Source: Gorsachius magnificus
Lineage: Eukaryota > Chordata > Aves > Pelecaniformes > Ardeidae
Assembly (NCBI GenBank): GCA_034008185.1
Contig: CM067082.1
Location: forward strand, 129,209,988 to 129,273,987
DNA length: 64,000 nt
Direction of reading: 5' to 3'
Position 1 is the first letter of the stretch. Every line of letters begins with the position of its first letter. This document shows, piece after piece, positions 20,438 through 51,815 of this stretch. A program made the translations under genes and the position numbers. The notes beneath the pieces were generated by a model, which searched no databases, was not told the origin of the DNA, and saw only the letters and a program-made list of their open reading frames with translations.

Positions 20438-20825
20438 AAGCCTGCGCGGGTGAGCGGCGGGCGGGCAGGGGCCCTCGGGTGCAGCGCCGCGGAGCCGCCG
20501 AGCCCCGGGCCCCTTCCCCAGACAATGGGCACGGCGGCGACCCGGACCCTCGCGAGGTGAAGCCGGGGGCGGGGGAGGCAGTGCCCGTCCTCTGCCCGGG
20601 CGCGGGGCGTGGCGGCAGCGCTGCGGCCTGTCGCGGGGAGCGGGGCGGGCGGGCCGGCCGGCAGGCTGGGGCGCGTAACGCGGGGCCGCGGTGCGGACCC
20701 ATTCGCTGCCGGGGGGGGAGGGTAATGTCACTGTTCAGGATGTCAGTGATGAGGAAAACCGGCTCAAAACCCAGCCTGGCACCTCCTCTGTTCCCTCGCG
20801 CGGAAACGAGGCGTCGTAAAACTGC
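19985..20825 (-). promoter_or_regulatory. PHF14: CpG-island promoter of PHF14
   Basis: About 840 bp with dense CpG and GC-box-like runs (GGGGCGGG on either strand, for example around 20565-20575 and 20641-20650) in an otherwise AT-rich neighbourhood. It covers the first exon and most of intron 1. No TATA box is evident, as usual for widely expressed genes. A CpG-rich shoulder continues on the upstream side to about 21110. Confidence 0.85.
20438..20740 (-). other. PHF14: PHF14 exon 1: 5' UTR plus first base of the start codon
   Basis: The 3' end is fixed at 20438 by ...GGCTTTA|GTAAGT. The last A, joined to exon 2, makes ATG in the context CTTTATGG: pyrimidine at -3, G at +4, only moderate by vertebrate rules. 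The 5' end is a guess, since CpG-island promoters give diffuse starts. An ATG at 20702-20700 on the minus strand would be an upstream AUG if transcription starts above it; its frame runs into intron 1 in unspliced RNA. Confidence 0.7.
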
Positions 20826-20829
20826 TTTT

Positions 20830-23800
20830 GTTTAACCCCTGTCCTAAGAACTAAGTTCCCTGTGGGCTTCGTTGCATTGCCCAGCTTATTCTTGCACTCT
20901 TGAAAGATAGGAAGCCGTTGCATTCAGAAAAAAAAAAAAAACAAACAAACCCAGGGATTTTTGTTTGACCACATCGCACGAGTCCAGGAGCTAAGCACGA
21001 AACCTGGTGGCAGGAGATGGACGGCGAAGGAGAGCAGCGCAGGGCCATGGCCTTTCCGAGTCCCAAAGCCGCCTCCGTCCCCAGCGCCACCCCCAGCCCC
21101 CACGCACAGCCGGTATTGCCAGTCCCACATGTAAAAGCTGCCCAAAACTTTTAGGAAGTCTTCAAAAACACTGAGGGAATCCAGTTTTTTGGCTTTTTCC
21201 CCAAAACTTATTTTTGTAATTAGACGAATGGGGACATTCTTAAAGAATTGTTGCTTTGACATACCACCATGGCGTCAAGAGCTTGAGGATCAGAAATAGT
21301 GATAAACACGAGCGCTTGCAACAGAATTGTGAGAGCATATATTAGAAGATGTGTGCTCCACGATGCGTAAACGCAAGTAGGGTCAAACCACTACGATGAA
21401 GCGTGGAGGGAAGGTAAAGTTTGGTAAGCATACGGCCCATGACAAGAGCCTGCGCTACATTTAGCACAGCTCTGCATGTATCACCTGAGCGAGCCTTCCA
21501 AAATGGTTCTTGGTATTGCAAAGACAGATAGTATGTTATGGGTATACTAGTCATCTTTTTTTTTTTAAAATAGAGCATAGAGATGGCCAGTTAGTGTACG
21601 ATTTAATTATACATCTGAAATACTTTCGGCGATAATTTTCTGTGTTTCAGGTTTTGAGTATTTTGGAAGGGCAGAAAATTCCAAAGAGAAATGTGAATTC
21701 CGTGTTCGTTCTGCGCTTGAATTTCATAGGATTTTTACAGCACGTTATCACATCAATAGTTGATGTGTTCACACGTCCTTCTGTTTCTTCCACCAATTCT
21801 TTGGCTACATAGGTAGTCTCACTGCACAATGAACTCCTTTCCTGAATCTGTTATTGCCAGCCCTACCCAAATATGCTATCAGCCCATGCAGTCTAGTCTT
21901 TCCTTCAAAACTCTGATCAGCTTGCCTGTTCCAGTAGGAGTTGCGTATGTCTTAGTTTTTCACTCATTAAGGGATTTTTTTCCCTTTAACTGGCATGCCC
22001 ATCCTACTTTTGCTCTTCACACACAATCACAGTCTTAACAGGACAAGTAGGAGGGCTCAGATCCCTTCGTTTAGACTCTCCAGATCCATGCTGACATGTG
22101 CAGCAACAAGTTCTGCAGCATCCCTGGCCTGCCAAGGGACAAGCCCCTGATCCTGTCCCATACACAGTGATTGGCAGGACAACTCACATCGCATGTAAGG
22201 GGAAGGAAAAATAAGCAGAACTGACCCAAAATTTGGCTTTATGTAGGAGAGCAGACTGAGGGACACAGCCAGCTTCGAAGAATGAGGGCTTTTGGCATGT
22301 AATACAGGCAAAGGGCCTGTAGAGCAGCGGAGGAACTTATGACTCCTTTAAACATGAAAGTCAAAGCAGATGTATGGACTGTCTGGCTTTCAGTTCAGCT
22401 CTCTGGGGCAGCATGCAATGCTAAGATTATTCCAGTTTCTACCTACACAGTTCTGGCAAGAACAGATGATCAAGCAGAAGTTAATTAATGGCTGCCTGCC
22501 CCTGCTCCTCATCAGCATCTCACATTGCCCAACCGCTCCTTCCTCCGTACCTCTTTGTACTCTGTCCCATGACTCGAGCCCTCTCAGCCCTTCTGTCTTA
22601 CTCTTTCTTGTCCCAGATCTTTCTTTTTATTCTTCCTCTCCTTTTTTCCCCCTCCAAAAGAATATTCACACTTACTTTTATTTCTGAAAATAGCATGCAC
22701 ACGTTCTTTGTTATCTTCTGTAGTCAGCTTGCATACTTTGCCCTCATTCCTCAACAGAAAAAAAACTACATCAATAAAATGTGAAGCACCTAACATTTAT
22801 TCACCGTTTCCCTAAACTTCTGGGCATTACAAACATAGGGCTTACAGATAAATCCTCCAAATTCAGTAATTAGAATTTAGAAGTTTAGTAAATAGAAATA
22901 AAGCATACAGCACAGAAATTAACTAGAACTACCAGTCTATCTTCTGATCAGCATTCTTTGGAAGTTTCTGGCTATTAAAACATCTATTAAGTCCCCCTTA
23001 GTAAACGCTAACCTCCTCTAGTAGAGTCAGACTATTTCAAGTAAGGGGAAGAGAGGGAAGAATTTTTGCTCCAAATGAAAGAAGCCTTCAGAGAGAATGT
23101 CTGATCCCCTTATTTCTGCGAGGCCTTTGCCAGTCTCAGCAGATAATCAAGGATGTTGAAATGTTCAGTTGCCTTTTTGGTTGAAGAAATGAGGTATTAA
23201 TGGCACACTGCTGGGAGCTGGGCACTGTACTGACACTGCTATATGCATTAAGTAGATTGTAAGTATTGTCAGTTTAGCACCTTTAAGTACTACCCTCATA
23301 CACATACAAAAAATTATCTTAAAATGTCATTTTTAGAGCAAAATTATGAGGAGCTGAAATAGTACATCTAGTATGAAAATGTCATGGCAGCTCCATCACT
23401 AACACAATACTTCAAAAATGCCTAGAAATATTTCAGTATATCAGGTCATGTCAGGTACATCAGGTCTTTCAATTATCTCAGCATTCCAGTGGTTCTCTTC
23501 AGGTCGAGCCTTCAGTGCACAGCCTGTTGCAAGAGTAGGTGTCTGAATCTCCATTTCAGTGCTGCTCTTCAACGGCTGGAGAAAGAAAGAAAATAATATC
23601 TTCTGACTGTACTTTTGCCCCAAGAAAAAAAAGAATCTTTGTTGCAGTTCTGTAAAGACCATTTTAGAAGGAGTTACACAATAGCAAGTCAGCAGAGAAT
23701 ACAGTCACACTCATATAAATTACCTTAAAAATATCATTCTTAGTTTAATTAAAGTGTCGAGTTTTCAAAGAAAAATACAATAATACAACATTTCCTCACC

Positions 23801-31619: not shown

Positions 31620-32072
31620 TTGATCCAGCCTAGACTGGCCAAGGACTTCTCAGCTCTCAGCTCTGCCAGGTGCACAAGAAGCTGGGAGGGGACACAGCCA
31701 GGACAGCTGAACCCAACTGGCCAAAGGGCTTTCCACACCATATGATGTCATGTTCAGCATATAAAGCTGGGGGAAGAAGGAAGGGAGGGACGTTTGGAGT
31801 GATGGCATTTGTCTTTCCAAATAACCATTACACGTGATGGAGCCCTGCTTTCCTGGGGATGGCTGAATGCCTGCCCATGGGAAGCAATGAAAGAATTCCT
31901 TGGTTTTCTTTGCTTGCGTGCATGGCTTTTGCTTTACCTATTAAGCTGTCTTTATCTCAGCTCAGGAGTTTTCTCACTTTTGCTCTTCTGATTCTCTCCC
32001 CCATCCCACTGTGGGGGGAGAGAACAAGCAGCTGTGTGGGGCTGAGCTGCCGGCTCGGGTTAAACCACGACA
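31620..32072 (+). mobile_element. Partial ERVL-type LTR, 5' end missing
   Basis: It shares the LTR body with the retrovirus at 39551: GCCAAGGACTT, CTGCCAGGTGCA, AAGCTGGGAG, ACCATATGATGTCATG, ATTAAGCTGTCTTTATCTC, GATTCTCTCCCCCATCCCAC, and the terminus GGTTAAACCACGACA ending at 32072. The first 130-140 bp of U3, including TGTCCTGG, are not recognisable. Unlike the two full LTRs it keeps a TATA motif (CATATAAAG near 31757). It is much more diverged and thus older. It is probably a truncated solo LTR; no internal viral sequence flanks it. Confidence 0.85.
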
Positions 32073-38000: not shown

Positions 38001-39550
38001 TATGTCCTACAGAAAATCCTCAGTTTATATATTGTTCTGAATAACAGAGAAATGTCTTTGATGATATAGGACAATTCACAGAGAATTTAGTTTCTTGATC
38101 TGTGGCCAAATGGAGCATATCCAAATCTAGTAGTCTTCCCTTCCTATTTTCCTCCAATTAAAATACGCGACTTCAAAGTGACTATGATGATGTCTCTGTT
38201 TATTTTTTTTTAATCGACTGATTCTGTCAAACGTTGAGAGTGCAATTCTTCAAATAACCTCCGATTTTATTACGACTTCATATTCCTGTTCTTCAGGAAA
38301 TAGACATATCTGTGGCTAAAATTGATTGCTTTTAATATAAAAAAATGAAGCACACAATAACTGATGTTAAACAGAGTAGAAATCCGTGGATATATGATTC
38401 ATAATAACAGGTAAGGTTTAGGGAAGAAAGACTTTAGAAACAGGAAGGCCACCAAATACAAAAACAAAGCATCTGGAATAGAAGAAAAGTTTCTGAAACC
38501 AAAAGCTCAAATGAGCCTAAGGATAGGAACAAGGTATGACAGCAATCAAAGAAGGACAACTGAGAGAGAGAAGGCATGAGGTGAGGTTGTACACGGGAAC
38601 AAAAGAAAAGAGGAAAAAATAAATGATAAAGCACCAGAATAACCCAAGGACTTGATTTTCAGCAGTGCTGAGCACTATTGCAAATCTAGCCCCTTAGTTC
38701 TTAATGGACCGGTTCATCACAAAACCTTGCCAAAATACCTGAAGGATTTATGGATTCACTTATTTAAAAAGCAGAAACCTACACAAAAATAACTTTACTC
38801 AGAACGAAGGAAGTGACTAGTCTAACTAAAGCATCATAAATTTAATTGTCAGGTGTGAACACACAGACACCAAACTTTAAGAGGAAATAAATGTGTTTAC
38901 TTTCAGCTTGAGTAGCTAAGCGGCAGACACAAGAGTGGTAAAATTCTCTATCTAGTGTTTACTCTCTTTAAGGGAATGGATGGATTCTTGATGAGTAAGA
39001 GAAAATTGTTAGTCTTCAAGTATGGCCAATATTTTGAGAGCATGACTATAAATTAACACATGCAATTTATATAACTATAGCATAGGTGAAGCACACAAAC
39101 ACGGCAGCTAAGTAGGTATTTCTAGGAACCACGGATCCACCATCAAGACGCCATGAAGTGGCTTGAGTTTATACTCAGAATTTCACCAAGCCAAGCAACT
39201 GAGAGGTGGCATTTTTAACGATGCTTGCACTGGGTGTACTTTTCAGAATATTAACTCATGATTTCTAGAACTATAATGAAAAAATCTGTTTTCTGCTTGT
39301 TTCTACACTTCAATTTTTTGTTTGTAAAATTCATTAACATACACAAAAGTCCAAGTAACATAAATAATAAGACATGTATCTGAACAATGAACCAGCTGAG
39401 CCATACAGGCCCAGGCCATAAAAGCTGATGTACACAATGAGTAAAATTCATGAAAGCCCACAAAATGCATGACAAATTTTGCAAATTGATCAGGTTTGCC
39501 TCTGTTTAAATTCATAAAAGCAAAAGAAGCCAGCAAAAGTATAAATCATT
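32073..39550. other. Intergenic, no gene recognised
   Basis: About 7.5 kb of AT-rich sequence between the partial LTR and the retrovirus. T and A homopolymers occur (32957-32969, 35275-35287). Open frames up to 120 codons (35714-36076, plus) have no domain signature. No RNA gene, CR1 or exon could be supported. Confidence 0.55.
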
Positions 39551-40161
39551 TGTCCTGGTTTCAGCTGGGATAGAGTTAATTTTCTTCACAGAAGCTAGCA
39601 TAGTGCTGTGCTTTGGATTTAGTGCTAGAAGAATGTTGATAACACGCTGATGTTTTTAGTTGTTGCCAAGCAGTGCTCAGACTGCTCAAGGACTTTTTGA
39701 GCTTCTCCTGCTCGGCCAGGTGCATAACAAGCTGGGAGTACAGCACAGCTAGGACCCAAACTGTCCAAAGAGCTATTCCATACCATATAACGTCATGCTC
39801 GGGGGGGGTTAGTCGGTCGGGTCGGTCGGGTCGGTCGGTCGGTCACGGGCAGAGTGGTTGCAGCTTGGGCTGTGTGATCACGGCTCGGGGGGAGTGATCG
39901 CTGCTCGGGACGGGCTGGGCATCGGTCAGCAGGTGGTGAGCAATTGCATTGTGCATCACTTGTTTTATATATTCTGTATATTTTCTTACCATTATTATTA
40001 TTATTGTTATTCTTCTCTCTTATTAAACTGTCTCTATCTCAACCCACGGGTCTTACTTTTTTTTTCTTTTCTCTGATTCTCTCCCCCATCCCACTGAGGG
40101 AGGGGGGGAGTGAGAGAGTGGCTGCGTGGTGCTTAGTTGCCAGCCGGGTTAAACCACGACA
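39551..40161 (+). repeat. ERV LTR, inverted copy
   Basis: A 611-bp LTR, TGTCCTGG...CCACGACA, on the plus strand, opposite to the internal genes. The U3 side abuts non-viral sequence (ATAAATCATT) without a polypurine tract, as at a true integration edge. The U5 side is followed by GTCCTATTT and then directly by the end of the gag-proximal ORF. It contains a GTCGG-type minisatellite (39812-39843), a TTA microsatellite (about 39992-40010), and ATTAAA (poly-A signal variant) near 40023. By eye it differs from the 41107-41714 LTR at about six bases plus a microsatellite length change, and the first ~345 bp look identical. Confidence 0.95.
39790..39850 (+). repeat. GTCGG minisatellite within LTR U3
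   Basis: After CATGCTCGGGGGGG come repeats of GGTCGG and GGTC up to GGTCACGGG. The same array stands in the other LTR (41415-41480, reverse complement). It occupies the place where the related partial LTR at 31757 has a TATA box, so the array has apparently displaced the TATA element in this subfamily. Confidence 0.85.
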
Positions 40162-40988
40162 GTCCTATTTAGGTTTGCTCCCTGTTTCAGCTGCAATGCT
40201 GTTGCTGGGGTTTGCGTAGCTACAGTGCAGGTTGCAGGGGTTGGAGTAGCAGCGGTGCCTGTCGCAGGGGTTGGAGTAGCAGTGGTGCCTGTGCCTACGG
40301 CTGGAGGAGCTATAGTGGGTGTCACTGGGGTTGGAGTAGCTGCAGTGCCTGTGTCCACAGTTCGGGTAGCTACAGTGGGTGTTGCAGGGGTTGGAGTAGC
40401 AGCGGTGCCTGTCGCAGGGGTTGCAGTAGCAGCAGTGCCTATGTCCACAGTTGGAGTAGCTACAGGGGGTGTCACTGAGGCTGGAGTAGCCGCAGGGCCT
40501 GTTGCAGGAGTCGATCTTTGGATGGTATATAATTTACATAGGAGTCTAACCCTGAGTAAAAGCTGAACTATATTCAGGAGACCTAGCAATAGGGCCATGC
40601 TAGTTGGAACATCCCAAGGATATTCAACATTCTCAAGAACTGTTGTAATTAGCTCAGAGAAGAAGGGGAAGATGGAGTAAGGTGACTCCCCCACAGGCTG
40701 GCTCTCCGAGGATAAAAAGTAAAATATGTAATTATTCATAATTCCCAATAGATGGTTCCCAAAATACAGAGGTGACAGCAATACTGAGTACAAATATGAG
40801 CTTAATGTGATGACCAATATTTTTATCATAGCATAAGCCAGTATTATACAATACAGCAGGACAGTAACTTTAATCCACTTGCGAAAAGTGATAGCCAGCA
40901 GCACAGGGAGTGCACACAGAAGGTAAGGCGCTACATAAAAGAACGCTGTGAACAAGGACAGCAACTCTGAGAGCAAATAAAACAACAT
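40149..40988 (-). CDS. ERV gag-proximal ORF with membrane helices and Ala/Thr/Pro repeats
   Basis: A 279-codon open frame that starts about 90 bases after the primer binding site, the place where a retroviral leader gives way to gag. Residues 1-~100 hold three or four strongly hydrophobic segments (for example FYVAPYLLCALPVLLAI and VTVLLYCIILAYAMI). A further hydrophobic stretch follows near 130-150. Then come about ten 10-residue units of the type ATPTPATGTA or ATPTVDTGTA. The last residues lie inside the inverted LTR, so the natural C-terminus is lost. The frame is probably the N-terminal part of the gag precursor, cut off from the rest at 46412-45306; alternatively it is a separate leader protein. 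Multi-pass hydrophobic sequence is unusual for gag. Function unknown. Confidence 0.7.
   Translation of the reverse strand: MLFYLLSELLSLFTAFFYVAPYLLCALPVLLAITFRKWIKVTVLLYCIILAYAMIKILVITLSSYLYSVLLSPLYFGNHLLGIMNNYIFYFLSSESQPVGESPYSIFPFFSELITTVLENVEYPWDVPTSMALLLGLLNIVQLLLRVRLLCKLYTIQRSTPATGPAATPASVTPPVATPTVDIGTAATATPATGTAATPTPATPTVATRTVDTGTAATPTPVTPTIAPPAVGTGTTATPTPATGTAATPTPATCTVATQTPATALQLKQGANLNRTVVV
40219..40510 (-). repeat. 30-bp coding minisatellite
   Basis: About ten imperfect 30-bp units (plus-strand form GTTGCAGGGGTTGGAGTAGC followed by AGCGGTGCCT) encode the Ala/Thr/Pro-rich decapeptides of the ORF above. The unit is a multiple of three, so copy number can change without breaking the frame. 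Confidence 0.9.
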
Positions 40989-41079
40989 TGCGATCAGTGA
41001 CTATTAGACTAATATAACGAATGCTTATCACAAATTCGTTTTAAAAATGTTCAGATCTGTCGTTATCTCAACCCTTTGG

Positions 41080-41097
41080 GCCCCACGTTGGGTGCCA
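41080..41097 (-). other. Retroviral primer binding site
   Basis: The minus strand reads TGGCACCCAACGTGGGGC, nine bases after the LTR end. This differs at one base from the well-known lysine tRNA(1,2)-type site. A tRNA 3' end would prime minus-strand DNA here. The primer identity is inferred from the motif only. Confidence 0.85.
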
Positions 41098-41106
41098 AAA
41101 TAGGAC

Positions 41107-41714
41107 TGTTGTGGTTTAACCCGGCTGGCAACTAAGCACCACGCAGCCGCTCGCTCACTCCCCCCCTCCCTCAGTGGGATGGGGGAGAGAATCAGAGAAA
41201 AGAAAAAAAAAGTAAGACCCGTGGGTTGAGATAGAGACAGTTTAATAAGAGAGAATAATAATAATAATAATAATGGTAAGAAAATATACAGAATATATAA
41301 AACAAGTGATGCACAATGCAATTGCTCACCACCCGCTGACCGATGCCCAGCCCGTCCCGAGCAGCGATCACTCCCCCCGAGCCGCGATCACACAGCCCGA
41401 GCTGCAACCACTCTGCCCGTGACCGACCGACCGACCCGACCGACCCGACCGACTAACCCCCCCCGAGCATGACGTTATATGGTATGGAATAGCTCTTTGG
41501 ACAGTTTGGGTCCTAGCTGTGCTGTACTCCCAGCTTGTTATGCACCTGGCCGAGCAGGAGAAGCTCAAAAAGTCCTTGAGCAGTCTGAGCACTGCTTGGC
41601 AACAACTAAAAACATCAGCGTGTTATCAACATTCTTCTAGCACTAAATCCAAAGCACAGCACTATGCTAGCTTCTGTGAAGAAAATTAACTCTATCCCAG
41701 CTGAAACCAGGACA
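41107..41714 (-). repeat. ERV LTR in gene orientation, shared by pol and leader
   Basis: A 608-bp LTR reading on the minus strand (TGTCCTGG at 41714 to CCACAACA at 41107). A polypurine tract precedes it, so it is the 3' LTR of pol. A primer binding site follows it, so it is also the 5' LTR of the leader. One LTR in both roles is what a one-LTR circle or a tandem provirus gives. The last bases are CACAACA against CACGACA in the other copy, a CpG transition. Confidence 0.95.
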
Positions 41715-41728
41715 TTATCCACCCCTTA
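41715..41728 (-). other. Polypurine tract
   Basis: The minus strand reads AATAAGGGGTGGATAA immediately before TGTCCTGG of the LTR, the position where plus-strand DNA synthesis is primed. No such tract precedes the inverted LTR. Confidence 0.8.
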
Positions 41729-42120
41729 TTCTATACCATTTACGTCATGCTTAGGTCCTACCCTTACAATACATTCCAATTAATCACCACCATTTTCTCA
41801 TCTTTTTGGTACATACACAGATATCATTCCCTTAGTCTATAGGCCATCCCTCTGAAATGTCCATTGGGTTCATATAGTCCATGGTTTTGGGCTCCATCTG
41901 TCGTAACAGTCTTTCAGGGCAGGAGAGATGGGGTCTGGTGTTGGGTTGTTGCTTGCTGAAGTCAGTTCTGGTTCCATCCGCTGCACTTCCTCAGTTTCTT
42001 CAAAATTCATTCTTCATTAATCTGGGCGATTCCTACTGCTATACCATTGATAGGACATACAGCAATAGTAAAAATGATGACATACTATATTATACAGCAA
42101 TTAACATTATACAATTCAGT
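41729..42120 (-). other. ERV non-coding 3' region
   Basis: About 390 bases between the integrase stop and the polypurine tract. No open frame of note, so neither env nor dUTPase is present, in keeping with ERVL elements that lack env. Confidence 0.75.
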
Positions 42121-43158
42121 TCATTGGCTGTTTTCACCCAAAATCAAATCCCTTTGAGGTACACATCGGACTTCCCCATCCTTCCGCATCACCCACCAAG
42201 TAGAGCCAGGTCCTTGAGCAAAAGCAATCCCACGGATGGGTTTGCCTTTACCTGAGGCAGGAGAAACCCAGACTGTCTTCCCCAGCATATTTTTTACATG
42301 CACTACAGGGACTTTATCCCCTTCTACAGTACGTAAGAGGCTTGATTGGGCAGGGCCAGCTCGGTTGGCAGATCCTCTAGTGTTGACTAACCAGGTAGCT
42401 TTTGCTAAATGTGTATCCCAATGTTTGAATGTTCCACCACCCATTGCTTTCAGTGTAGTCTTTAACAGTCCATTGTATCGTTCAATTTTCCCAGAGGCTG
42501 GTGCATGATAGGGGATGTGATAGACCCACTCAATGCCATGCTCTTTGGCCCATTTGTCTATGAGGCTGTTTCGGAAATGAGTTCCGTTGTCTGACTCAAT
42601 TCTTTCTGGGGTGCCATGTCGCCACAGGACTTGTTTTTCAAGGCCTAGGATAGTGTTCCGGGCAGTGGCATGGGGCACGGGATATGTTTCCAGCCATCCA
42701 GTGGTCGCTTCCACCATGGTGAGCACATAGCGCTTGCCATGGCGGGTTTGTGGGAGTGTGATATAATCAATCTGCCAAGCCTCTCCGTATTTGTATTTCA
42801 GCCACCGTCCTCCATACCAGAGAGGCTTTAACCGCTTGGCTTGTTTGATCGCAGCACATGTTTCACATTCATGGATAACCTGTGCAATAGTGTCCATAGT
42901 TAAGTCCACCCCTCGATCACGAGCCCATCTGTATGTTGCATCTCTTCCTTGATGGCCTGAGGTGTCATGGGCCCACCGAGCTAGAAACAATTCACCCTTA
43001 TGTTGCCAGTCCAGATCTACCTGAGCCACTTCAATCTTAGCAGCCTGATCTGCCTGCTGGTTGTTTTGATGTTCTTCAGAGGCCCGACTCTTGGGTACAT
43101 GAGCATCTACGTGACGTACTTTTACAACCAAGCTCTCTACCCGGGCAGCAATATCTTG
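42121..43158 (-). CDS. ERV integrase, open to its natural stop
   Basis: The open frame runs from just after an in-frame TAG (43161-43159) to a TGA at 42123-42121. The zinc-binding HHCC part is seen as HDTSGHQGR followed by CETCAA. The catalytic triad is D in QIDYI, D in SDNGTH and E in KIERYNG. A C-terminal DNA-binding region follows (WVMRKDGEVRCVPQR). The enzyme inserts viral cDNA into host DNA. It would normally be released from the gag-pol precursor, from which it is now separated by the upstream stop. Confidence 0.93.
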   Translation of the reverse strand, partial: QDIAARVESLVVKVRHVDAHVPKSRASEEHQNNQQADQAAKIEVAQVDLDWQHKGELFLARWAHDTSGHQGRDATYRWARDRGVDLTMDTIAQVIHECETCAAIKQAKRLKPLWYGGRWLKYKYGEAWQIDYITLPQTRHGKRYVLTMVEATTGWLETYPVPHATARNTILGLEKQVLWRHGTPERIESDNGTHFRNSLIDKWAKEHGIEWVYHIPYHAPASGKIERYNGLLKTTLKAMGGGTFKHWDTHLAKATWLVNTRGSANRAGPAQSSLLRTVEGDKVPVVHVKNMLGKTVWVSPASGKGKPIRGIAFAQGPGSTWWVMRKDGEVRCVPQRDLILGENSQ

Positions 43159-43635
43159 CTACAGTGCGGCAGCCCAGATGGGTTTGCCCCTGCGCTGCCA
43201 GTTGTTCTGCTTCCATTGCTGCAACCACCCCCACAGGGCATTTGCCACCATCCATGAGTCAGTATAGAGATAGAGCACTGGCCATTTTTCTCTTTCAGCA
43301 ATATCTAAAGCCAGCTGGATGGCTTTCACCTCTGCAAACTGACTTGATTCACCTTCTCCTTCAGCAGTCTCTGCAACTTGTCTTGTAGGACTCCATACAG
43401 CAGCCTTCCACTTTCGATGCTTTCCCACAAGACGACAGGATCCATCAGTGAACAGGGCATATTGCTTCTCATTTTCTGGCAATTTATTGTACAGTGGGGC
43501 CTCTTCAGCACGCACCACCTCCTCCTCTGGTGATATTCCAAAATCTTTGCTTTCTGGCCAGTCTGTGATCACTTCCAAGATTCCTGGGCGACTGAGGTTT
43601 CGATTCGAGCCCGTTGTGTAATCAGTGCGACCCAC
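43159..43635 (-). pseudogene. ERV RNase H region, stop codon before integrase
   Basis: The frame carries RNase H motifs with the acidic residues of FTDGS, FAEVKAI and YTDSWM in order. It ends in TAG at 43161-43159, where the reading continues in frame into integrase; a TGG to TAG change is the simplest cause. It is joined to the RT frame upstream by a frameshift at about 43595-43615. Both lesions are polymerase-breaking and appear to be post-insertion decay. Confidence 0.88.
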
Positions 43636-45305
43636 TTACTCCACGTAGCATCAGTTGCATGATGTGTAGAGGGGACCTTCCCTTTGAACATCCAGCCCAA
43701 CACCGGCAGTCGGGGTGCCAGGAGGAGCTGTGCTTCAGTACCAACCACTTCTGAAGCAGCTCGAACCCCTTCATATGCTGCTAATATCTCTTTTTCAGTT
43801 GGAGTATAGTTGGCTTCAGATCCTCTGTATCCCCGACTCCAAAACCCTAGGGGTCGGCCTCGAGTCTCCCCTGGTGCTTTCTGCCAGAGCCTCCAGGTAG
43901 GGCCATTCTCTCCGGCTGTGGTGTAGAGCACATTCTTTACATCTTGCCCTGCCCGGACCGGCCCAAGGGCTACTGCATGCACTATCTTCCGTTTAATTTG
44001 TTCAAAGGCTTGTCGTTGTTCAGGGCCCCATTTGAAATCGTTCTTCTTCTGGGTCACTTGGTAGAGAGGGCTTACAACCTGGCTGTAATTTGGAATATGC
44101 ATTCTCCAAAAACCCACAACACCCAAGAAAGCTTGTGTTTCCTTCTTGCTAGTTGGTGGAGACATAGCTGTTATTTTGTTGATCACATCCATTGGAATCT
44201 GACGACGTCCATCTTGCCATTTGATTCCTAAAAACTGGATCTCCTGTGCAGGTCCTTTGACCTTACTTTGTTTTATGGCAAAACCGGCCTTCAGAAGGAT
44301 TTGGACTATTTTCTTCCCTTTCTCAAAAACTTCTTCTGCTGTATTGCCCCACACAATGATGTCATCAATGTATTGCAGGTGCTCTGGAGCCTTACCCTGT
44401 TCCAGTGCTGTCTGGATCAGTCCATGGCAAATGGTAGGGCTGTGTTTCCACCCCTGGGGCAGTCGATTCCAGGTATACTGGATGCCCCTCCAAGTGAAAG
44501 CAAACTGTGGCCTGCACTCTGCTGCCAAAGGGATTGAAAAGAAAGCATTTGCAATATCAATTGTGGCATACCACTTGGCTGCCTTTGACTCCAGTTCATA
44601 TTGAAGTTCTAACATGTCCGGCACGGCAGCACTCAGTGGTGGCGTCACTTCATTCAGGCCACGATAGTCTACTGTCAGTCTCCACTCTCCATCAGACTTT
44701 CTCACTGGCCATATGGGACTGTTAAAGGGTGAGTGAGTCTTGCTGATCACTCCTTGGCTCTCCAGTCGACAAATCAGCTTATGGATGGGAATCAAGGAGT
44801 CTCGGTTGGTGTGATATTGCCGCCTGTGCACTGTTGTGGTGGCAATCGGCACTTGTTGTTCTTCAACACTCAGCAACCCCACAACCGAAGGGTCCTTTGA
44901 GAGACCAGGCAAGGTAGACAGCTGCTTAGTTTCTTCTGCCTCCAATGCAGCTATACCAAAAGCCCACCGGTACCCTTTTGGGTCCTTGAAATACCCTCTC
45001 CTGAGGTAGTCTCTGCCCAGGATGCACGGAGCATCTGGGCCAGTCACAATGGGGTGCTTTTGCCACTCATTCCCAGTTAGGCTCACTTCGGCCTCCAATA
45101 CAGTCAGCTCTTGAGATCCCCCCGTCACTCCAGAAATACAAAGGGATTCTGCCCCTATATGGCTTGATGGCATTAGAGTACACTGTGCACCGGTGTCTAC
45201 TAGAGCTCTATACTTCTCTGGGTCTGACGTGCCAGGCCATCGAATCCACACAGTCCAGTAGACCCGGTTGTCCCTTTCCTCCACCTGGCTGGAGGCAGGG
45301 CCCCT
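43569..45305 (-). CDS. ERV protease-reverse transcriptase, in frame after gag UAG
   Basis: The frame follows the gag stop TAG (45308-45306) without a shift. Early on it has the retroviral aspartic protease motif VDTGAQ and the ILGRDYL flap-partner segment. RT motifs follow: WRLTVDYRGLN, LPQGWKHSP and the active site YIDD (Y-x-D-D), then FLGVVGFWRMHIP and a thumb/connection region with PLGFWS, typical of the class III (ERVL) type. The frame leaves the expected path near 43610, where a single-base indel moves the reading into the RNase H frame. There is no methionine start; synthesis must have been by read-through of the gag stop. Confidence 0.92.
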   Translation of the reverse strand, partial: RGPASSQVEERDNRVYWTVWIRWPGTSDPEKYRALVDTGAQCTLMPSSHIGAESLCISGVTGGSQELTVLEAEVSLTGNEWQKHPIVTGPDAPCILGRDYLRRGYFKDPKGYRWAFGIAALEAEETKQLSTLPGLSKDPSVVGLLSVEEQQVPIATTTVHRRQYHTNRDSLIPIHKLICRLESQGVISKTHSPFNSPIWPVRKSDGEWRLTVDYRGLNEVTPPLSAAVPDMLELQYELESKAAKWYATIDIANAFFSIPLAAECRPQFAFTWRGIQYTWNRLPQGWKHSPTICHGLIQTALEQGKAPEHLQYIDDIIVWGNTAEEVFEKGKKIVQILLKAGFAIKQSKVKGPAQEIQFLGIKWQDGRRQIPMDVINKITAMSPPTSKKETQAFLGVVGFWRMHIPNYSQVVSPLYQVTQKKNDFKWGPEQRQAFEQIKRKIVHAVALGPVRAGQDVKNVLYTTAGENGPTWRLWQKAPGETRGRPLGFWSRGYRGSEANYTPTEKEILAAYEGVRAASEVVGTEAQLLLAPRLPVLGWMFKGKVPSTHHATDATWSKWVALITQRARIETSVAQESWK

Positions 45306-45308
45306 CTA
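45278..45308 (-). promoter_or_regulatory. Candidate gag stop read-through signal
   Basis: Gag ends in AATTAG, and pro-pol continues in the same frame with no methionine. Nine bases after TAG (AGGGGCCCTG between) is a perfect 6-bp hairpin: CCTCCA at 45295-45290 and TGGAGG at 45283-45278, loop GCCAGG. A stop codon, short spacer and stable structure in one frame is the layout of UAG read-through in gammaretroviruses. Read-through is inferred, not shown. Confidence 0.55.
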
Positions 45309-46412
45309 ATTCTGATCACTGTTGCTCATGGTTTGTGTATATGAGTCAGAAGTTCCTTCATCACAATCAGAATTAAGATCAGCTGTTCTATTCTGTCTGA
45401 AAAAATGACAATCTACCCCGTCTCTGGAAATTGGAGCAACAAGTTTCTTGGAAGAGCCCCCTTTTGTGCTTGTTTTTCTTTGCAACTTGTGTACTCGTGC
45501 CTCTAGGGTCGAGGTAGGTTTTCCATCCCATTTCCTCATGTCCTCTCCATGGTCACGCAGGTAAAACCATAGAGTTCCCCGTGGTGTGTACCCTCGATAT
45601 TCCTTTCCTTGAGCAGAAGGGCGCTTACTTCTAATGGCTGAGATACTGGTCTGTACAGGAGAGGTGTAGGGTATACGCTTTTCAAGTCGTTCAACCTTTT
45701 GGGACAGTTTATCCACAGCAGAGACAAGGGAAGAAGAGATACTTTCTTCGTATTCCCGGAGCTGGCTAGCCATTTCATCCACTGTTGGTCCCCGTCCAGC
45801 TTCCCAGCTCATTATTGCCCATGTGTTGGCATATGATGTTGGTGCGCTCCGTAACAACTTCCGCCACATGGGTCGTGTGCACCGGACACTATCTGGATCT
45901 TTAGGCAACTGGTCATTGTCCAGGTCACTATAAATCACTTCCAGGACAGCCAATTCCCTCAGGTACTGGATGCTTTTCTCCACGGTGGTCCATTTGCCTG
46001 GGCGATGTATGACATCTTCCTTGAAGGGATATCTTTCCTTCATGGCTGACAGTAGTCACCTCCAGAGGCTGAGGACTTGTGTCCCTTTTCCAATCGCTTT
46101 GTCAATGCTGCCTTCCCTAGAAAGGGATCCCAGCTGTTTGGTTTCCTTACCCTCCAGTTCCAGGCTACTGGCCCCATTATCCCAGCATCGGAGCAACCAG
46201 GTGACAAGATGCTCTCCTGCACGACAGCTGAAATCTTTTCTCATATCTCGCAGCTCACCCAAGGATAGAGACCGTGTAGTTTCTGTCTCATTTATGAGCT
46301 CTTCCTCTTCCTCCTCCTTTTGTGATGGCCCTGATTCATCCTCCCTTTCTAAATGAGTTGACTTTCGCTTCCAAGATTTCTTCTTGTGTATAGGGGCAAC
46401 TGATACCGGCAC
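45306..46412 (-). pseudogene. ERV gag remainder, interrupted by one stop
   Basis: One minus-strand frame from the element edge (46412) to TAG at 45308-45306, broken by a TGA at 46058-46056. It begins with a basic KKKSWKRKS patch, then an acidic EEEEEE run. After the stop, a capsid-like region follows (YPFKEDV, RYTRPMW-like spacing as CTRPMWRK). Then come a heptad-like SAVDKLSQKVERLEKR and GYTPRGTLWFYLRDHGED, which recur in class III bird gag frames. No CCHC zinc knuckle is seen. The N-terminal portion is absent here and probably corresponds to the ORF at 40149-40988. Confidence 0.8.
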
Positions 46413-47130
46413 ATCATTGGAGAAAAAAAAGAATATACTGAGAAGCATATAAAACCCATGATGTATTTCCTAAAAATAAGTGCCCAAGACATGCCTAGTG
46501 GAAGTAACATATCCCTGATGGCCTTCCCTTAGAAGAGTAGAAGCAGACCACTCAAAGCCTCTGAATTTCTGCCACTTAGCCTTATGTCGGCGGCACAGAA
46601 GAAAGCAGACTGTTTCAATTTGAGGCGAGTTTTGCTCAGCAGCCCCACATAGCTACTGGCTATCTGTCTACCCTTTGGTCCCTCCCTGGTTATCCTGCAG
46701 CTGCTCCGGCAGCTGGTGTTCCCTGTGATCCAAATACATGGTGAAAAGTTCAATCACTCTACCAGAGAGCGAGCAGCATAACCTTCCAGGTTACCCTTGG
46801 CGGTTTCAGGTGTTTCTCTTATAAAAGAAACAGCAGTGATACTGTTATTTTCAATACTTTTAACTGCATGGTCAAATTGCTCTTTTAATTTGGAAAAAAT
46901 GGAAAAAATACTCTTCCCACTGTATACTGAACTGGTTAAAAGTATCTTGCAGCACTGCAACTATGCTCTTTTTTTTGTTCATCAACTCTGAAACAGATGA
47001 GAGAGACAAGTAATAGGGTTGCATTGCTCCAAAGAAAACACGCTGTAATTTTTGTGGGGTCATCCAATGACCTGGCAAATGTATCTGTGCGAGTTACTGA
47101 ATATGGCCAACTGCCAGCATTTTTGTCTTG
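46413..47130 (-). pseudogene. Broken coding-like sequence, possibly prominin-related
   Basis: Directly beyond the retroviral edge, three overlapping minus-strand frames (47078-46872, 46960-46754, 46753-46529) look coding-like and would need frame changes to join. Visible features are a helical, charged stretch (KLKEQFDHAVKSIENN), then ITAVSFIRETPE and GYAARSLVE. In spacing they recall the last extracellular segment of prominins, where coiled helices precede a Phe/Tyr-rich segment and a final membrane helix. That is a pattern-level resemblance, and conserved cysteines were not confirmed. If real, the lack of introns would suggest a retrocopy. Confidence 0.22.
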
Positions 47131-48030
47131 TCCATGGTTATCTGCTAGCCAGATTAAACTGGCTCTGGCAAACTGAAAAACGTTGGATTATGGAATGATA
47201 AGCAAGGAATCACATGGGGGTTTTTTTAGAATTTATTGTGACAAGGACAATTGGAGACAATTCTTGAAATACGCAGAAGCCAGTCTGTGGAGATAGCGAG
47301 TGACATAAAAGACATCTGTTTGCTTAAATTAATTTGCTCTCTGACATTTCACTCCATTATTTTTTACTTAAAATGACTTTGATATACATCCACACAAACC
47401 ATTAGCATTCATGTAAAGTTATTCTGCTTCTAACCTAGGAAAGGGACTCTTTTTGTCTTAGGTCAGTAGCATGCTGATATTCCCTCTACCTAAAAATGGA
47501 TTTCTTAATGACTGGGTGCAAGCTTACCTTTTGGGTTACTTTTCGTGAAAAAATTGTATATCACAGTGACTGGGGATCGTGCCCAAAGATAGGCATTAGG
47601 TTCCCAATTCTGTGGAAGAGAAGATACACAGCAATGGAGACCAAAGTAGGAAGGCACTTGGATACGCTCAGTATCCTACAGTAGGTAGCTCCATTGCTCA
47701 TTTGGTTACCTAACAAAAAAAAATGAAATCCAACCCAACCTTGCCTAAAATATGTAACATCTTCCTATAAACCTCTCTGCCAAAGGTTTTTTTGTCATTG
47801 TGTATCACATGTACATTAAATTTGAAAATCAAAGATCTCCCTCAACTCTGCGTATGCACCCAACTGTCGCCGCCCTGGCCGCAGTTGGCATTAGCTTCAC
47901 TAGCTAATTCATCATTAGCTTGGCAGTTTTACGATGAATTTCACTCTTTCGTCTTTTTCAAGAGAGCGAACCCCTCACTCTCCTGCCTCACCTTTAAACC
48001 ACCCCCTCAACTTTTAACCCGGGTGACGGC
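47131..48030. other. Intergenic upstream of NDUFA4
   Basis: AT-rich sequence with no recognised gene; CpG density rises from about 48010. A plus-strand open frame at 47792-48052 has no domain signature. Confidence 0.6.
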
Positions 48031-48232
48031 AGAAGACAGACCTCCACAGTGAGGTTTGCCCCGCAGGGGAGGCGGCGAAGGCGGGTGCACGCCCGCGCCC
48101 CCACACCACGGTCCCGCCACCACAGCGGGGAGGGCAGAAACCTACGGGGCGGGCTGCGGCGGCTCCGGGCCGGGGCAGAGGCTCGTAAGGATCCGGCGGG
48201 GGAGGGCGCCGGGGAGCGGAGGGGAGGGGAGA

Positions 48233-48307
48233 GGCGGGGAGGCAGCGGCCCTCAGGATCCGGCCCTTGGCGGGGAGGCAGCGGCCCTCAGGATCCGGCCC
48301 TTGGCGG
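48233..48307 (+). repeat. 35-bp tandem duplication in the NDUFA4 promoter
   Basis: Two exact copies of a 35-bp unit (48233-48267 and 48268-48302) start GGCGGGGAGGCAGCGG and end GGATCCGGCCCTT. A partial GGCGG starts a third. Each copy carries one GC-box-like GGCGGGG. Confidence 0.9.
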
Positions 48308-48654
48308 CTCCTCCGCCGCCCGCCGCGCTGCCCGGCCCGCCCCGGCGCCGGGCCCGGGGTGCCCGGGCAGGTGCCTGTTCCCCCGAGCGGCGCTGCCGGG
48401 CGGACGGCGGGGGTCAACGGGAGGGCGCCCGGGGCCCGGGGTGCCGGCGCGGGGCGCGGCGGAGGGGCGGCGGGCCGGGGGCGCCGCGGCGGAGGGCGAA
48501 CAGGCAAACGCCGGAGTTGCTACATCCGGGCTGCGGCGGCGGGCACCTGCCGCGCCGGGGGCTTCGGGTGACATTGGGCCTCGGCGGCTGAGGGGGGAGG
48601 ACGGGATCCGGAGCCTGGTAGAGAGCAAGACCTTCGCCTGCGCCCGCTGCCGCC

Positions 48655-48696
48655 ATGTTTCGCGTGATGGTCAGCCACGCCAGGAAGCACCCCAGC
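48655..48696 (+). CDS. NDUFA4: NDUFA4 exon 1 (start)
   Basis: Encodes residues 1-14, MFRVMVSHARKHPS. The context GCCGCCATGT is a strong start with A/G at -3, and the donor is CAGC|GTGAGT, phase 0. NDUFA4 is a small inner-mitochondrial-membrane protein. It was first assigned to complex I and is now accepted as a subunit of cytochrome c oxidase (complex IV). The basic N-terminus (Arg3, His8, Arg10, Lys11, His12) precedes the single membrane helix, and the KHPS motif is the family landmark. Residues 2-8 differ from the mammalian protein more than the rest does. Confidence 0.96.
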
Positions 48697-49362
48697 GTGA
48701 GTACCCGCCGGCACCGCTCTGGCGGCGCCTCGGCCCCGGCGGGCTGCCGCCCCCTCCCTGCGCCCTCCCCGGCCGGCGGAGGTGCCCGCGGCCCCGCCGG
48801 TCGCCCCCCTCCTCGCTCTTCCCTCCCCTTCCCTTCTGGATGCCTGGCCCCTCGGGTGGGCTGGGGCTGACGGCGTGTGGGTAGCCAGGGCTGTTGGGCG
48901 AGACGAGGTCCGGGCCCCTTTTCCCTTTGTGGGCCGTTCTTGTGCCGCAGCAGCAAGGCTCAAAGTAGCTCCTGCATTTTCCTGCTCGTCCCTTTCCCTG
49001 CACCCCCCGCTCCCATTTTCCTGCTTCGGGGGTAGAGTTTGTAGGGGCTGGTTTGGGCAGTGGAAGGATTGATGTTTGTTTCTCAGAAACGTGCTGTTAG
49101 GGGAGGTTTGGTTGTTCTGCAGGTAGCAGTAACTCTTTTTTTTCATGACTGCCTCTTCATAGCTGCTAGTTCCTCTCTGACCCCAGGGATGTCCTGCACA
49201 CAGGGAACTTATGTCAGGATTTTAGAGGGCCATGCGGGTTATGGCTCAAAATGCGTGTGAGCTTGTTCTTTGGTTTGTCATTGCTGTAGTCAGAAGTGCT
49301 ATGTAGTAATACTGTTTTGTTATATCGTGGTATGACATTTAATTTTGTTGTTGTTGTTCTAG
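48697..49362 (+). other. NDUFA4: NDUFA4 intron 1
   Basis: A 666-nt GT-AG intron. The 5' third is GC-rich (end of the CpG island), and the 3' end has a (GTT)n tract before CTAG. No other feature. Confidence 0.9.
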
Positions 49363-49451
49363 TTGATCCCTCTGTTTTTGATCATTGGATCTGGAGGCGT
49401 TGGCGCAGCCCTGTATCTCATGCGCTTGGCAGTGTTCAACCCTGATGTCTG
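49363..49451 (+). CDS. NDUFA4: NDUFA4 exon 2: membrane helix
   Basis: Encodes residues 15-43 and two bases of Cys44. The acceptor is TTGTTGTTCTAG|TTG and the donor is [31 protein letters not shown] is the single transmembrane helix with its glycine-rich centre, followed by RLAVFNPDV, which is nearly invariant in the family. The helix anchors the protein in the inner membrane next to COX subunits. Confidence 0.97.
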
Positions 49452-49777
49452 GTATGTATAAAATAACTTACAGCGCCCAGTCCTCTTGCTGCATGTGTTA
49501 AAGTAAACTTCCCTGCCTTGGGCCTTATGTTTCTGGAAGCCTTAATGTCTTGCTCCAGTATCATTGGCACTAAGTGTGTGGAGATTTCCTTGATTTGGAG
49601 AATTGTTTACCATATGACCGTACCACTGCAAAAGGATGGCGTCTTTTTCTGTGGAAGCTTATTTGGATGAGTGACTTCCCATGGCTTAATAACCACAGTA
49701 TGCATACAAATTTTAATTATTTTAAAGGCAGTGTGATTCTCTTAATATATTCTCATGTCTTGCATTTCTCTCAATAG
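49452..49777 (+). other. NDUFA4: NDUFA4 intron 2
   Basis: A 326-nt intron with a GTATGT donor and CTCTCAATAG acceptor. Nothing else recognised. Confidence 0.9.
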
Positions 49778-49838
49778 CTGGGACAAGAAAAATAATCCAG
49801 AACCTTGGAACAAACTGTCTCCCAGTGATCAGTACAAG
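49778..49838 (+). CDS. NDUFA4: NDUFA4 exon 3
   Basis: Completes Cys44 and encodes residues 45-64 ([20 protein letters not shown]). The acceptor is TCAATAG|CTGG and the donor is TACAAG|GTAAAA, phase 0. The conserved CWD and NPEPWNKL motifs identify the family. Compared with the 81-residue human protein there is one extra lysine after Trp-Asp, giving 82 residues in total. Confidence 0.96.
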
Positions 49839-51815
49839 GTAAAATGAAAAATACCGATTTTTAGGAAACATAATATCAAAGGTGTAGCCTATTGCTTTAT
49901 GATGTTTGAATATATTTGAAAATAGCTGAATGAGAGATGTATTTCCTCTGCTGTGCAACATTTGTGTCTAGAACTCAGAGCAGAGAGACCTGAGTTTGAG
50001 ATTTAAAACTTCCTAGAGTTGGTTGATAATGGGTTGAAAGGAGTCTATGCGGAAGCAGTCATATATATTGCACTGTAAGAAAAAGAGGAATTACGTGTGA
50101 GAGGAAGAAGATACTAGCTCACAATACTCAGAAGTAAACTATAGGGAGAAGGACGAAACCTCGTAACTTCTGAACTAAAGCTTTCTAAGCTCTAAACTGT
50201 TGGCCTTTACTCATGAGAAGCAAAGCAGAGAAAGGTATTAAACATAATTCAGCTCTACAGCTGATTGTTGAAAACAAAACAGTTGTAAATAACTGGATGC
50301 AATAGAAATTTCTTTAAAGTAATGCTCAAGTTACCACATTGAACTAATGAGAAAGCATGCAAAGATATGTAAAACACTTGGTAGTTTACAGAAATAATGG
50401 TTTTATCATATTTCATTTAAGTGGTATTTTAGTAGATTCCTGTTAAGAATATTTTAAGATTATCCTCATGCTACTAAAAAAAGCAAACCTACTATGTTTT
50501 CAAAGCTAGTATCTGTTCAGTACCATATCTCTACAATTCCAACCATTGAAATAAGCAAACAAAGCCCCCACACTCCAAAATAAAATGTGTTGCGGTTCCC
50601 TTAAAGGTCCAGGAAGAACATAATACTTTATTTTCATTGCTGCTCTGGAATGTTGCTGTTTCTGAAATATCTAAAAGAGGAAAATTCAACATAGTGCGCA
50701 ACACAAATTCTTTTAAAGAGTGCATGCCTTGTGTAGCATTCCCCTTCTGTCTTAGCGTGCAAACACAACCTCAAGGTTTACCATATTTGGGAGTGTGTAT
50801 CGTTGGGGATTTTTTTTTCCAAATCTGCACTGTGGGAAACGGAAAGGCAGATACCCTAAATTGAGGATGACTGTTTAGTAAAAAGCTCTGATACAACAAC
50901 TTTTAGCTTTTGATGAAACCATTTTTCTTTTGTAAACTTATTTTTGTCATATCAGCTTCTCCAATCTTCCCAAAGAATTGAAGACCCTATCATTGCTGTA
51001 GGAGTTCCGCAGAAAGCTGTAATTTGAATGTGCTGTAGGCTGTTTTGTTTTCTCTGAGGGAGTTAAAAAATAATTAAATTTGGGCATAACTAAAAATGAT
51101 CAAGCTAATAGATAAATACTACTTTTTTTTTTTTTATAAAGAAAAACTGTAGCATCAGATGTGTGATGTCAAGTCAGGCTTGGATGCCAAAATATGCATT
51201 TAATCTGTAAATTCATTGTCCTTAGTGACTTTTGGGCTATTTTGAATTGTTTGTAATGGGATCCGACTTTATTAATATAAATTGAGAGTGTGAAAGGATC
51301 TGTTCTTACTATCATTTCTCCTTGTTGTACCTTGCAGTTCTAGATGCAGCTACTTAAAACCAGTGCTTTTGCAGCACTGCTCTAAATGTTCCCTTGTGAC
51401 ACTATCTGTTCACATATACCATGCCTTGTGCCACTTGGCAAGCTAGGTGTTGCCTTTGGTATACAGGAGCACACAGATTTGGGGCATAAAGGGTACACTC
51501 AGCAGTACTGTAAGAACTTCCTGTGAATGGACTCTTAATTCTGGGGATTAAAGAAGAGATACTGTGGGTTTTCTCTAGTTGTAGATGTGAGCACTGCCTC
51601 ATTTTAAGTGCAGAGCTTCTAATACTGTATGCAGAATGAATATTAAAAGGTTGCTGCTCTTCAAAGTAGTATTTATTTATTATTGTCTAGTGTACACACT
51701 CATCTATTATTTCAGTTTCCTGAAGTGAGTTCAAGTGATGCGTGTTTTTTAGTAAATACCATGAAAAATTGGTAGTTGAGCTTCTTACTCATATTTTTTT
51801 TTCCCTCTTTCCTAG
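49839..51815 (+). other. NDUFA4: NDUFA4 intron 3
   Basis: A 1977-nt intron with a long T-rich tract before CCTAG. No transposon or RNA gene seen. Short open frames on both strands are chance. Confidence 0.88.

What the first reader, a model, noticed from the sequence alone, without database searches (positions are those of the whole stretch)
39551..46412. Circularly permuted retrovirus with an inverted terminal LTR
Seen directly: the LTR at 41107-41714 has a polypurine tract on its U3 side and a primer binding site on its U5 side. Gag-remainder and pol lie before it, and the leader and gag-proximal ORF after it. The near-identical LTR at 39551-40161 points the other way and caps the gag-proximal end; the gag-remainder end has no LTR. 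A normal provirus, a solo LTR or a simple tandem cannot give this. A model that fits every joint: one U5 end joined an internal gag site (one-ended autointegration or end-joining), and the segment between the now inverted LTRs flipped by LTR-LTR recombination, before or after insertion. A one-LTR circle broken in gag and joined to a stray LTR is an alternative.
Basis: partly seen in the sequence, partly recalled or inferred. Interest (0 to 1): 0.85.

Follow-up and report, generated by a model that had tools for sequence, protein, structure and literature searches.

The report
Scrambled retrovirus inserted through gag
A bird endogenous retrovirus whose DNA copy was rearranged before it entered the chromosome appears to have been inserted by the virus's own integrase, using one normal viral end and one stretch of the gag gene that resembles a viral end.

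Summary
In detail: on the minus strand the order is gag remainder, pol, LTR, primer site, leader, start of gag, then a second LTR reversed.

Three facts were missed. (1) The whole unit, 39551-46413, starts TG, ends CA and has a perfect 5-bp duplication (TCATT), the length seen in normal copies. So it very probably went in as one already rearranged molecule; assembly error is unlikely. (2) The outer LTR keeps nine bases beyond CA, exactly to the U5/primer-site border, so its U5 end was joined to gag unprocessed. (3) The gag pieces meet at one base of the normal gene, and the gag sequence used as outer end, TGTGCCGGTATCAGTTG, matches the U3 end at 13 of 17, tied best of 11,206 interior 17-mers.

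Best reading: one cDNA, cut or discontinuous at this U3-like gag site, was rearranged, end-joined, then integrated in concert through a real U3 end and the gag mimic. The integration step is well supported; the route of rearrangement is inferred. One case only: 39 of 39 other gag copies read (of 896 candidates) are continuous there. A genome-wide search for more did not complete.

The parts
39546..39550 (.). left copy of the 5-bp target duplication TCATT
   Evidence: normal copies of the family have 5-bp duplications
39551..40161 (+). outer LTR, U3 end joined to host at TG, in + orientation
40162..40170 (+). nine bases (GTCCTATTT) beyond the CA: unprocessed U5 end, stopping exactly at the U5/primer-binding-site border
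   Evidence: the same spacer stands before the primer site in 10 of 10 other 5' LTRs (one with a single change)
40171..41079 (-). leader and gag-proximal piece; gag end at 40171 joined to the U5 tail
   Evidence: ORF with 30-bp repeats at 40199-40508; joint found once in the genome at up to two mismatches
41080..41097 (-). primer-binding site (tRNA-Lys1,2 type by recall)
41098..41106 (-). nine-base spacer between LTR end and primer-binding site
41107..41714 (-). inner LTR with PPT on one side and leader on the other
41718..41727 (-). polypurine tract (AAGGGGTGGA); two extra bases (TA) before the LTR compared with 10 of 10 other 3' LTRs
42121..43158 (-). integrase piece of pol
   Evidence: PF17921, PF00665; best solved-structure matches are PFV integrase
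43159..43635 (-). RNase H piece of pol
   Evidence: PF00075
43569..45305 (-). protease and reverse transcriptase piece of pol
   Evidence: PF00077 just above its cut-off, PF00078; best solved-structure match 7o0h (Pr125Pol)
45306..46413 (-). gag remainder; begins at 46413 with TGTGCC; no Pfam match
46397..46413 (-). gag sequence TGTGCCGGTATCAGTTG used as outer end; 13 of 17 identical to the U3 end TGTCCTGGTTTCAGCTG
46414..46418 (.). right copy of the 5-bp target duplication TCATT

Best explanation
This is one retroviral cDNA of a spuma-related (class III, ERVL-like) bird family that was rearranged before integration and then inserted by integrase in a single concerted reaction. Integrase used the true U3 end of one LTR and, as the second end, an internal gag sequence that mimics that U3 end. 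SHOWN: 5-bp duplication around the whole TG...CA unit; U5 end with its nine extra bases at the inner joint; gag cut at one base with no loss and at most one base of overlap; similarity of the gag end to the U3 end. INFERRED: that integrase joined both outer ends, and that the gag site was a plus-strand discontinuity (purine-rich AGGGAGCGAACC followed by TGTGCCGG, resembling PPT plus U3). Plus-strand DNA begun there and carried over to the primer-binding site gives gag remainder-pol-LTR-leader-gag start, a one-LTR reverse-transcription intermediate. Its two natural breaks are exactly the two ends seen in the inner joint: plus strand at the gag site, minus strand at U5/primer site. A spare LTR end with an unprocessed U5 terminus was then end-joined to the gag-proximal end, which supplied a genuine U3 end on that side, and the molecule integrated. 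The confidence given is for the integration step by either route of rearrangement; the particular route named here is at about 0.33.
For: Perfect TCATT at both ends. Normal copies: of 18 solo LTRs, 14 were scored with a perfect 5-bp duplication, 2 more have one by eye once the LTR end is read on (L023, L038), and 2 have one mismatch (L014, L036); L008 and L009 are two copies of one insertion. 5 of 5 LTR pairs that can be matched also have 5-bp duplications. The tail GTCCTATTT stands before a primer site in 10 of 10 5' LTRs (one with a single change) and is absent from 28 of 28 outer U5 edges, so its retention marks an unprocessed end. The two gag ends map to the same base in 5 of 5 intact gag copies; 39 of 39 other gag copies read run straight through (40 scored of 896 candidates). 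No interior 17-mer of 11,206 is closer to the U3 end than the gag end, one equals it, and it is the best of 911 TG-initial ones. Window LTRs are sisters among the 40 LTRs (FastTree support 0.923) with ordinary divergence, 7 in 605 against 1 to 14 in five intact pairs. The joint was found once in the genome. PMC5041404 (passages): when host enzymes insert the second end, duplications are usually much larger than 5 bp, or there are deletions. [quoted passage not shown]
Against: One example only; no second copy ending at this gag site was seen, and the genome-wide pattern search for such ends did not complete (24 tries). The U3 likeness depends on length: 13 of 17, but only 7 of 10, which 49 of 11,234 10-mers reach; the match to the U5 end is weak (9 of 17). 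The one equal 17-mer lies on the other side of the same cut, 40177-40193 (+), pointing the opposite way; its meaning is open, and it may owe something to changes private to this copy. In L003, L012 and L018 the gag site reads GCCAG and would score 12. The PPT likeness was looked for after the fact and is moderate (8 of 14 with a 2-base shift; combined score second of 5,645 positions). Whether the base at 46413 belongs to the element or to a 6-base repeat (ATCATT) cannot be told apart. A CA-N4-TG symmetry seen in the window's gag copy is probably later CpG decay, since most relatives read GAGCG. How nine bases come off U5 in this family is not known.
Confidence: 0.68

Rival explanations
1. Same integration step (so this overlaps with the best explanation), different rearrangement: the linear cDNA broke in gag, the U5 end of the right half was end-joined to the broken end of the left half, and the inverted LTRs then recombined and flipped the segment between them; or the two LTRs recombined first into a one-LTR circle plus a free LTR, and the circle was cut in gag and joined to the free LTR.
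For: Each part of one cDNA (two LTRs, gag start, gag remainder with pol) is present exactly once; every joint fits; LTR recombination to one-LTR circles is well known (PMC3148978 passages). Window LTRs are sisters.
Against: Needs a break exactly at the U3-like gag base plus a separate crossover; does not by itself explain why the break lies there or why its two sides abut within one base.
Confidence: 0.35
2. Integrase inserted only the U3 end; host end-joining inserted the gag end, and the 5-bp repeat, the CA and the U3 likeness are coincidence.
For: This is the known outcome when one viral end is unusable (PMC5041404 passages).
Against: Such second ends usually come with much larger duplications, or with deletions. 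A 5-base match at a fixed place is 1 in 1,024 at even base use; the gag end is also tied best of 11,206 17-mers.
Confidence: 0.12
3. A larger insertion (an LTR and gag start in front of the present unit) later lost that outer LTR and gag start by recombination between the U3 start and the similar gag sequence.
For: The 13-of-17 likeness could guide such a deletion and keep TG and the 5-bp repeat intact.
Against: It makes the start of the gag remainder and the end of the gag-proximal piece two independent breaks, yet they fall on the same gag base.
Confidence: 0.07
4. Integrase-made autointegration of the U5 end into gag.
For: Gives inverted LTRs and an LTR-to-gag joint; known for several retroviruses (PMC3148978 passages).
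Against: The U5 end is unprocessed (nine bases beyond CA) and gag shows no 5-bp duplication.
Confidence: 0.05
5. Assembly error or later chromosomal rearrangement of a normal provirus.
For: LTRs and the gag repeat array (40199-40508) are places where assemblers can go wrong; no reads were available here.
Against: An error or later rearrangement would hardly give a perfect 5-bp repeat, a joint at the exact U5/primer border and gag ends abutting within one base; there are no Ns in the window.
Confidence: 0.05

Closest known systems
Aberrant ASLV and HIV-1 integrations with one good end (PMC5041404, passages read)
   Same: One normal end, the other end abnormal and sometimes joined to further viral sequence in either orientation
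   Different: There the abnormal end is thought to be inserted by host enzymes, usually with much larger duplications or with deletions; here a perfect 5-bp duplication and a U3-like end point to integrase at both ends
Autointegration products (PMC3148978, passages read; Ty1 autointegration near a central flap is recalled only)
   Same: LTR joined to an internal site, internally rearranged viral DNA
   Different: Those joints use the integrase-processed end; here the U5 end is unprocessed, gag has no target duplication, and the molecule integrated
One-LTR circles, including those from interrupted reverse transcription (PMC3148978, passages read)
   Same: pol-LTR-leader-gag order with a single LTR between
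   Different: Here the permuted unit also carries an inverted LTR and is integrated with a target duplication
Cleavage of two-LTR junctions by foamy virus and HIV-1 integrase (PMC1180852, abstract and section 9; PMC1905944, passages)
   Same: Integrase acting on an internal site made of viral end sequence
   Different: The HIV-1 reaction is reported as intolerant of sequence change in the palindrome; the gag site is only a U3 likeness, and internal cleavage is not shown here

Membership tests
Class III (spuma-related, ERVL-like) endogenous retrovirus | Reverse transcriptase and integrase closest to spumaviruses | tested here: met
   best solved-structure matches by sequence are PFV integrase (3l2q) and Pr125Pol (7o0h; foamy virus by recall); no tree with named ERV families was made
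Class III (spuma-related, ERVL-like) endogenous retrovirus | 5-bp target duplications (ERVL value recalled) | tested here: met
   of 18 solo LTRs 16 perfect (2 of them by eye), 2 with one mismatch; 5 of 5 matched LTR pairs
Normal provirus | LTR-leader-gag-pol-LTR order with both LTRs in the same direction | tested here: not met
Product of integrase-mediated integration | TG...CA ends and target duplication of the family's length | tested here: met
   TG at 39551, CA at 46412-46413, TCATT on both sides
Product of integrase-mediated integration | Both outer ends are LTR termini | tested here: not met
   right end is gag; it resembles the U3 terminus at 13 of 17
Autointegration product | Processed CA end joined to the internal site | tested here: not met
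   nine further bases remain at 40162-40170
Autointegration product | Short duplication of the internal target site | tested here: not met
   the two gag ends overlap by one base at most
Integrated one-LTR circle or its reverse-transcription precursor | Permuted order with a single LTR between pol and leader, ends of the permuted unit abutting in the normal genome | tested here: met
   the circle itself is not observable
Tandem provirus from LTR recombination | Same-direction LTRs at both outer ends | tested here: not met

The most novel reading that the evidence does not exclude
The gag gene of this spuma-related family carries a second, cryptic 'PPT plus U3' site that can start plus-strand DNA and serve integrase as a viral end, so that permuted one-LTR reverse-transcription intermediates, usually dead ends, can now and then integrate in concert.
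Probability: 0.33. Interest if true: 0.75.

Novelty: new variant of a known kind. Interest (0 to 1): 0.56.

Why it matters
Unusual cDNA molecules (one-LTR forms, end-joined fragments) are usually regarded as dead ends, and when one end is bad the host tends to finish the job untidily. This fossil preserves every joint of such a molecule. It suggests that integrase accepted a look-alike end inside gag and completed a clean, concerted insertion. It also shows where the unprocessed U5 end of this family lies, nine bases beyond the integrated end. If the gag site recurs as an end elsewhere in bird genomes, plus-strand starts and integrase end recognition could be read from genome fossils.

Tried and rejected
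Two separate insertions side by side: rejected, because one 5-bp duplication brackets the whole unit and the two LTRs are sisters. Autointegration by integrase: rejected for lack of a gag duplication and for the unprocessed U5 end. A CA-N4-TG symmetry at the gag cut (as in a two-LTR junction): dropped, because most relatives have GAGCG where the window has GAGCA. Similarity of the gag end to the U5 end: weak (9 of 17). Whole-window RNA-family search at gathering thresholds and tRNA search: nothing found. Paper searches aimed at permuted, inverted or aberrant proviruses and cryptic ends (one search was on two-LTR junctions; one search returned none): among the papers listed, no title or start of abstract described this structure; the lists were cut (for example 20 of 41, 10 of 16) and cover only the open-licence library. 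One passage (PMC5408684) reports a circularly permuted rotifer scaffold that may have been assembled from an unintegrated circle. Dating: only relative (7 in 605 against 1 to 14 in five intact pairs); no rate was tested.
Full report
WHAT IS THERE. The best named relatives of the gag remainder are proteins of birds such as Mycteria, Pluvialis and Grus (120 of 271 hits listed), so the host is taken to be a bird. Two LTRs lie in opposite directions, 39551-40161 (+) and 41107-41714 (-), with 98.36% identity. On the minus strand the order is: gag remainder (46413 down to 45306), protease and reverse transcriptase (45305-43569), RNase H (43635-43159), integrase (43158-42121), polypurine tract (41727-41718), LTR (41714-41107), nine-base spacer, primer-binding site (41097-41080), leader, gag-proximal ORF, and then the outer LTR read backwards.

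THE FAMILY'S NORMAL FORM. The 40 best LTR matches of the genome were classified (40 scored of 4,009 first-look candidates). Eighteen are solo LTRs. Of these, 14 were scored with a perfect 5-bp duplication; 2 more (L023, L038) have one once the LTR end, cut short by the alignment, is read on; and 2 (L014, L036) have one mismatch. L008 and L009 have the same flanks and count as one insertion. Ten are 5' LTRs followed by GTCCTATTT (one with a single change) and the primer-binding site. Ten are 3' LTRs preceded by GGGGTGGAA and ending at CA next to host DNA. The five pairs that can be matched up all show 5-bp duplications. The remaining two are the window's. The inner one is the only LTR with both a polypurine tract and a leader. 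The outer one is the only LTR with the nine-base tail but no primer-binding site.

THE JOINTS. (i) Left host joint: TCATT|TGTCC, a normal U3 end. (ii) Right host joint...CCGGCACA|TCATT. The family's gag stops matching exactly there: in the 39 other gag copies scored (40 of 896 candidates) the match begins at query base 148 (window 46413) in 38 and at base 150 in one. So the unit 39551-46413 is TG...CA with a perfect 5-bp duplication. (iii) Inner joint: the outer LTR continues beyond its CA with GTCCTATTT, that is exactly to the base before the primer-binding site, and is then fused to gag. Because minus-strand DNA starts next to the primer-binding site (established retroviral biology), this is taken as the unprocessed U5 terminus. 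The 28 outer U5 edges of normal copies lack these nine bases. (iv) The gag cut: the gag-proximal end (window 40171) and the gag-remainder start (46413) map to the same base in L003, L004, L012, L017 and L018. The further 39 gag copies run through this point without a break: 37 by script, and L074 and L081 read by eye. The cut therefore lost nothing and duplicated at most one base. The joint itself was found once in the genome at up to two mismatches.

THE GAG END LOOKS LIKE A VIRAL END. On the minus strand the gag remainder begins TGTGCCGGTATCAGTTG; the U3 end is TGTCCTGGTTTCAGCTG, 13 of 17 identical. Of 11,206 interior 17-mers on both strands two reach 13, and this is the only TG-initial one of 911. 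The other one, 40177-40193 (+), lies six bases from the same cut on its other side and points the opposite way. For lengths 12, 14, 16, 17 and 18 the numbers of k-mers that do as well (the gag site included) are 11, 2, 2, 2 and 2; for 10 bases 49 of 11,234 do, for 20 bases 6, and for 25 and 30 the likeness fades (56 and 125). In host DNA of the window 1 of 113,936 17-mers reaches 13. The bases before the site in relatives, AGGGAGCGAACC (33 of the 37 copies), are purine-rich and moderately like the polypurine tract (looked for after the fact). In relatives with the GCCAG variant (L003, L012, L018) the likeness is one base lower.

ONE cDNA. The two LTRs are sisters among the 40 (FastTree support 0.923) and differ at 7 of 605 bases; five intact pairs differ at 1 to 14. 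Two LTRs, one gag-proximal piece and one remainder-plus-pol piece add up to exactly one cDNA.

HOW IT MOST LIKELY AROSE. Shown: one insertion with a family-length duplication; a U5 end with its nine extra bases joined to gag; a clean gag cut at a U3-like site. Inferred: integrase joined both outer ends, and the gag site was a plus-strand discontinuity. If plus-strand DNA started there and was carried across to the primer-binding site, the product is gag remainder-pol-LTR-leader-gag start, with nicks at precisely the two ends later seen in the inner joint (plus strand at the gag site, minus strand at the U5/primer border). End-joining to a spare LTR end supplied a true U3 end. A break in gag, U5 end-joining and LTR inversion, or a one-LTR circle plus free LTR, give the same molecule. 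The present sequence does not decide between these routes. What it does argue against is integrase-made autointegration (unprocessed U5, no gag duplication) and host-only joining of the gag end (PMC5041404, passages: usually much larger duplications, or deletions, in place of the 5-bp repeat). Foamy virus particles have been shown to hold one-LTR circles, and such circles can come from interrupted reverse-transcription intermediates (PMC3148978, passages). The pol pieces of this element are nearest to foamy virus among solved structures by sequence (the foamy identity of Pr125Pol is recalled).

AGAINST THIS READING. It is a single case. The genome-wide search for other copies ending at this gag site was requested 24 times and never answered. 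The likeness to the U3 end is strong at 12 to 18 bases but not at all lengths. The A at 46413 could belong to a 6-base repeat. No reads or related genomes were available to confirm the order or the empty site.

VERDICT. Real, not an artefact as far as the sequence can tell; a new variant of a known kind (a pre-integration rearrangement), with an unusual twist: an internal gag sequence apparently served as a viral end.

Noticed in passing
41098-41106 and L003, L004, L012, L017, L018, L026, L029, L032, L033, L037: The family has nine bases between the integrated LTR end (CA) and the primer-binding site, so integrase or another step must remove nine bases from U5; two is usual in well-studied retroviruses (recalled).
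   Followed up: partly
40149-41000 (-): The gag-proximal ORF has a strongly hydrophobic first half and a Thr/Pro/Ala-rich array of 30-bp repeats (40199-40508), with no Pfam match.
   Followed up: no
40171-40193 (+): Beside the gag cut, on its other side and in the opposite direction, a second stretch resembles the U3 end at 13 of 17 (40177-40193), so the cut lies within an imperfect inverted repeat in this copy.
   Followed up: partly
L008 and L009 (C14:12093581 and C14:12075051): Two solo LTRs 18.5 kb apart in opposite orientation have identical sequence and identical near flanks: an inverted duplication of the region, or an assembly effect.
   Followed up: no
31632-32072 (+): An older fragment of a related LTR, 76-77% identical in two pieces.
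   Followed up: no
41715-41720 (-): The window copy has GGATAA where 10 of 10 other 3' LTRs read GGAA before the LTR start: two extra bases at the polypurine-tract border.
   Followed up: partly
P0021 and other proteins: Database labels: a gag relative is filed under Klebsiella pneumoniae (probable contamination), and many gag relatives in birds are named ubiquitin carboxyl-terminal hydrolase 4, which looks like misannotation.
   Followed up: no
20001-22000 and 48001-50000: Two G+C-rich stretches (0.57 and 0.59 against 0.36 to 0.42 in the neighbouring 2-kb steps), possibly promoter islands of host genes; the element lies 1.6 kb from the second.
   Followed up: no
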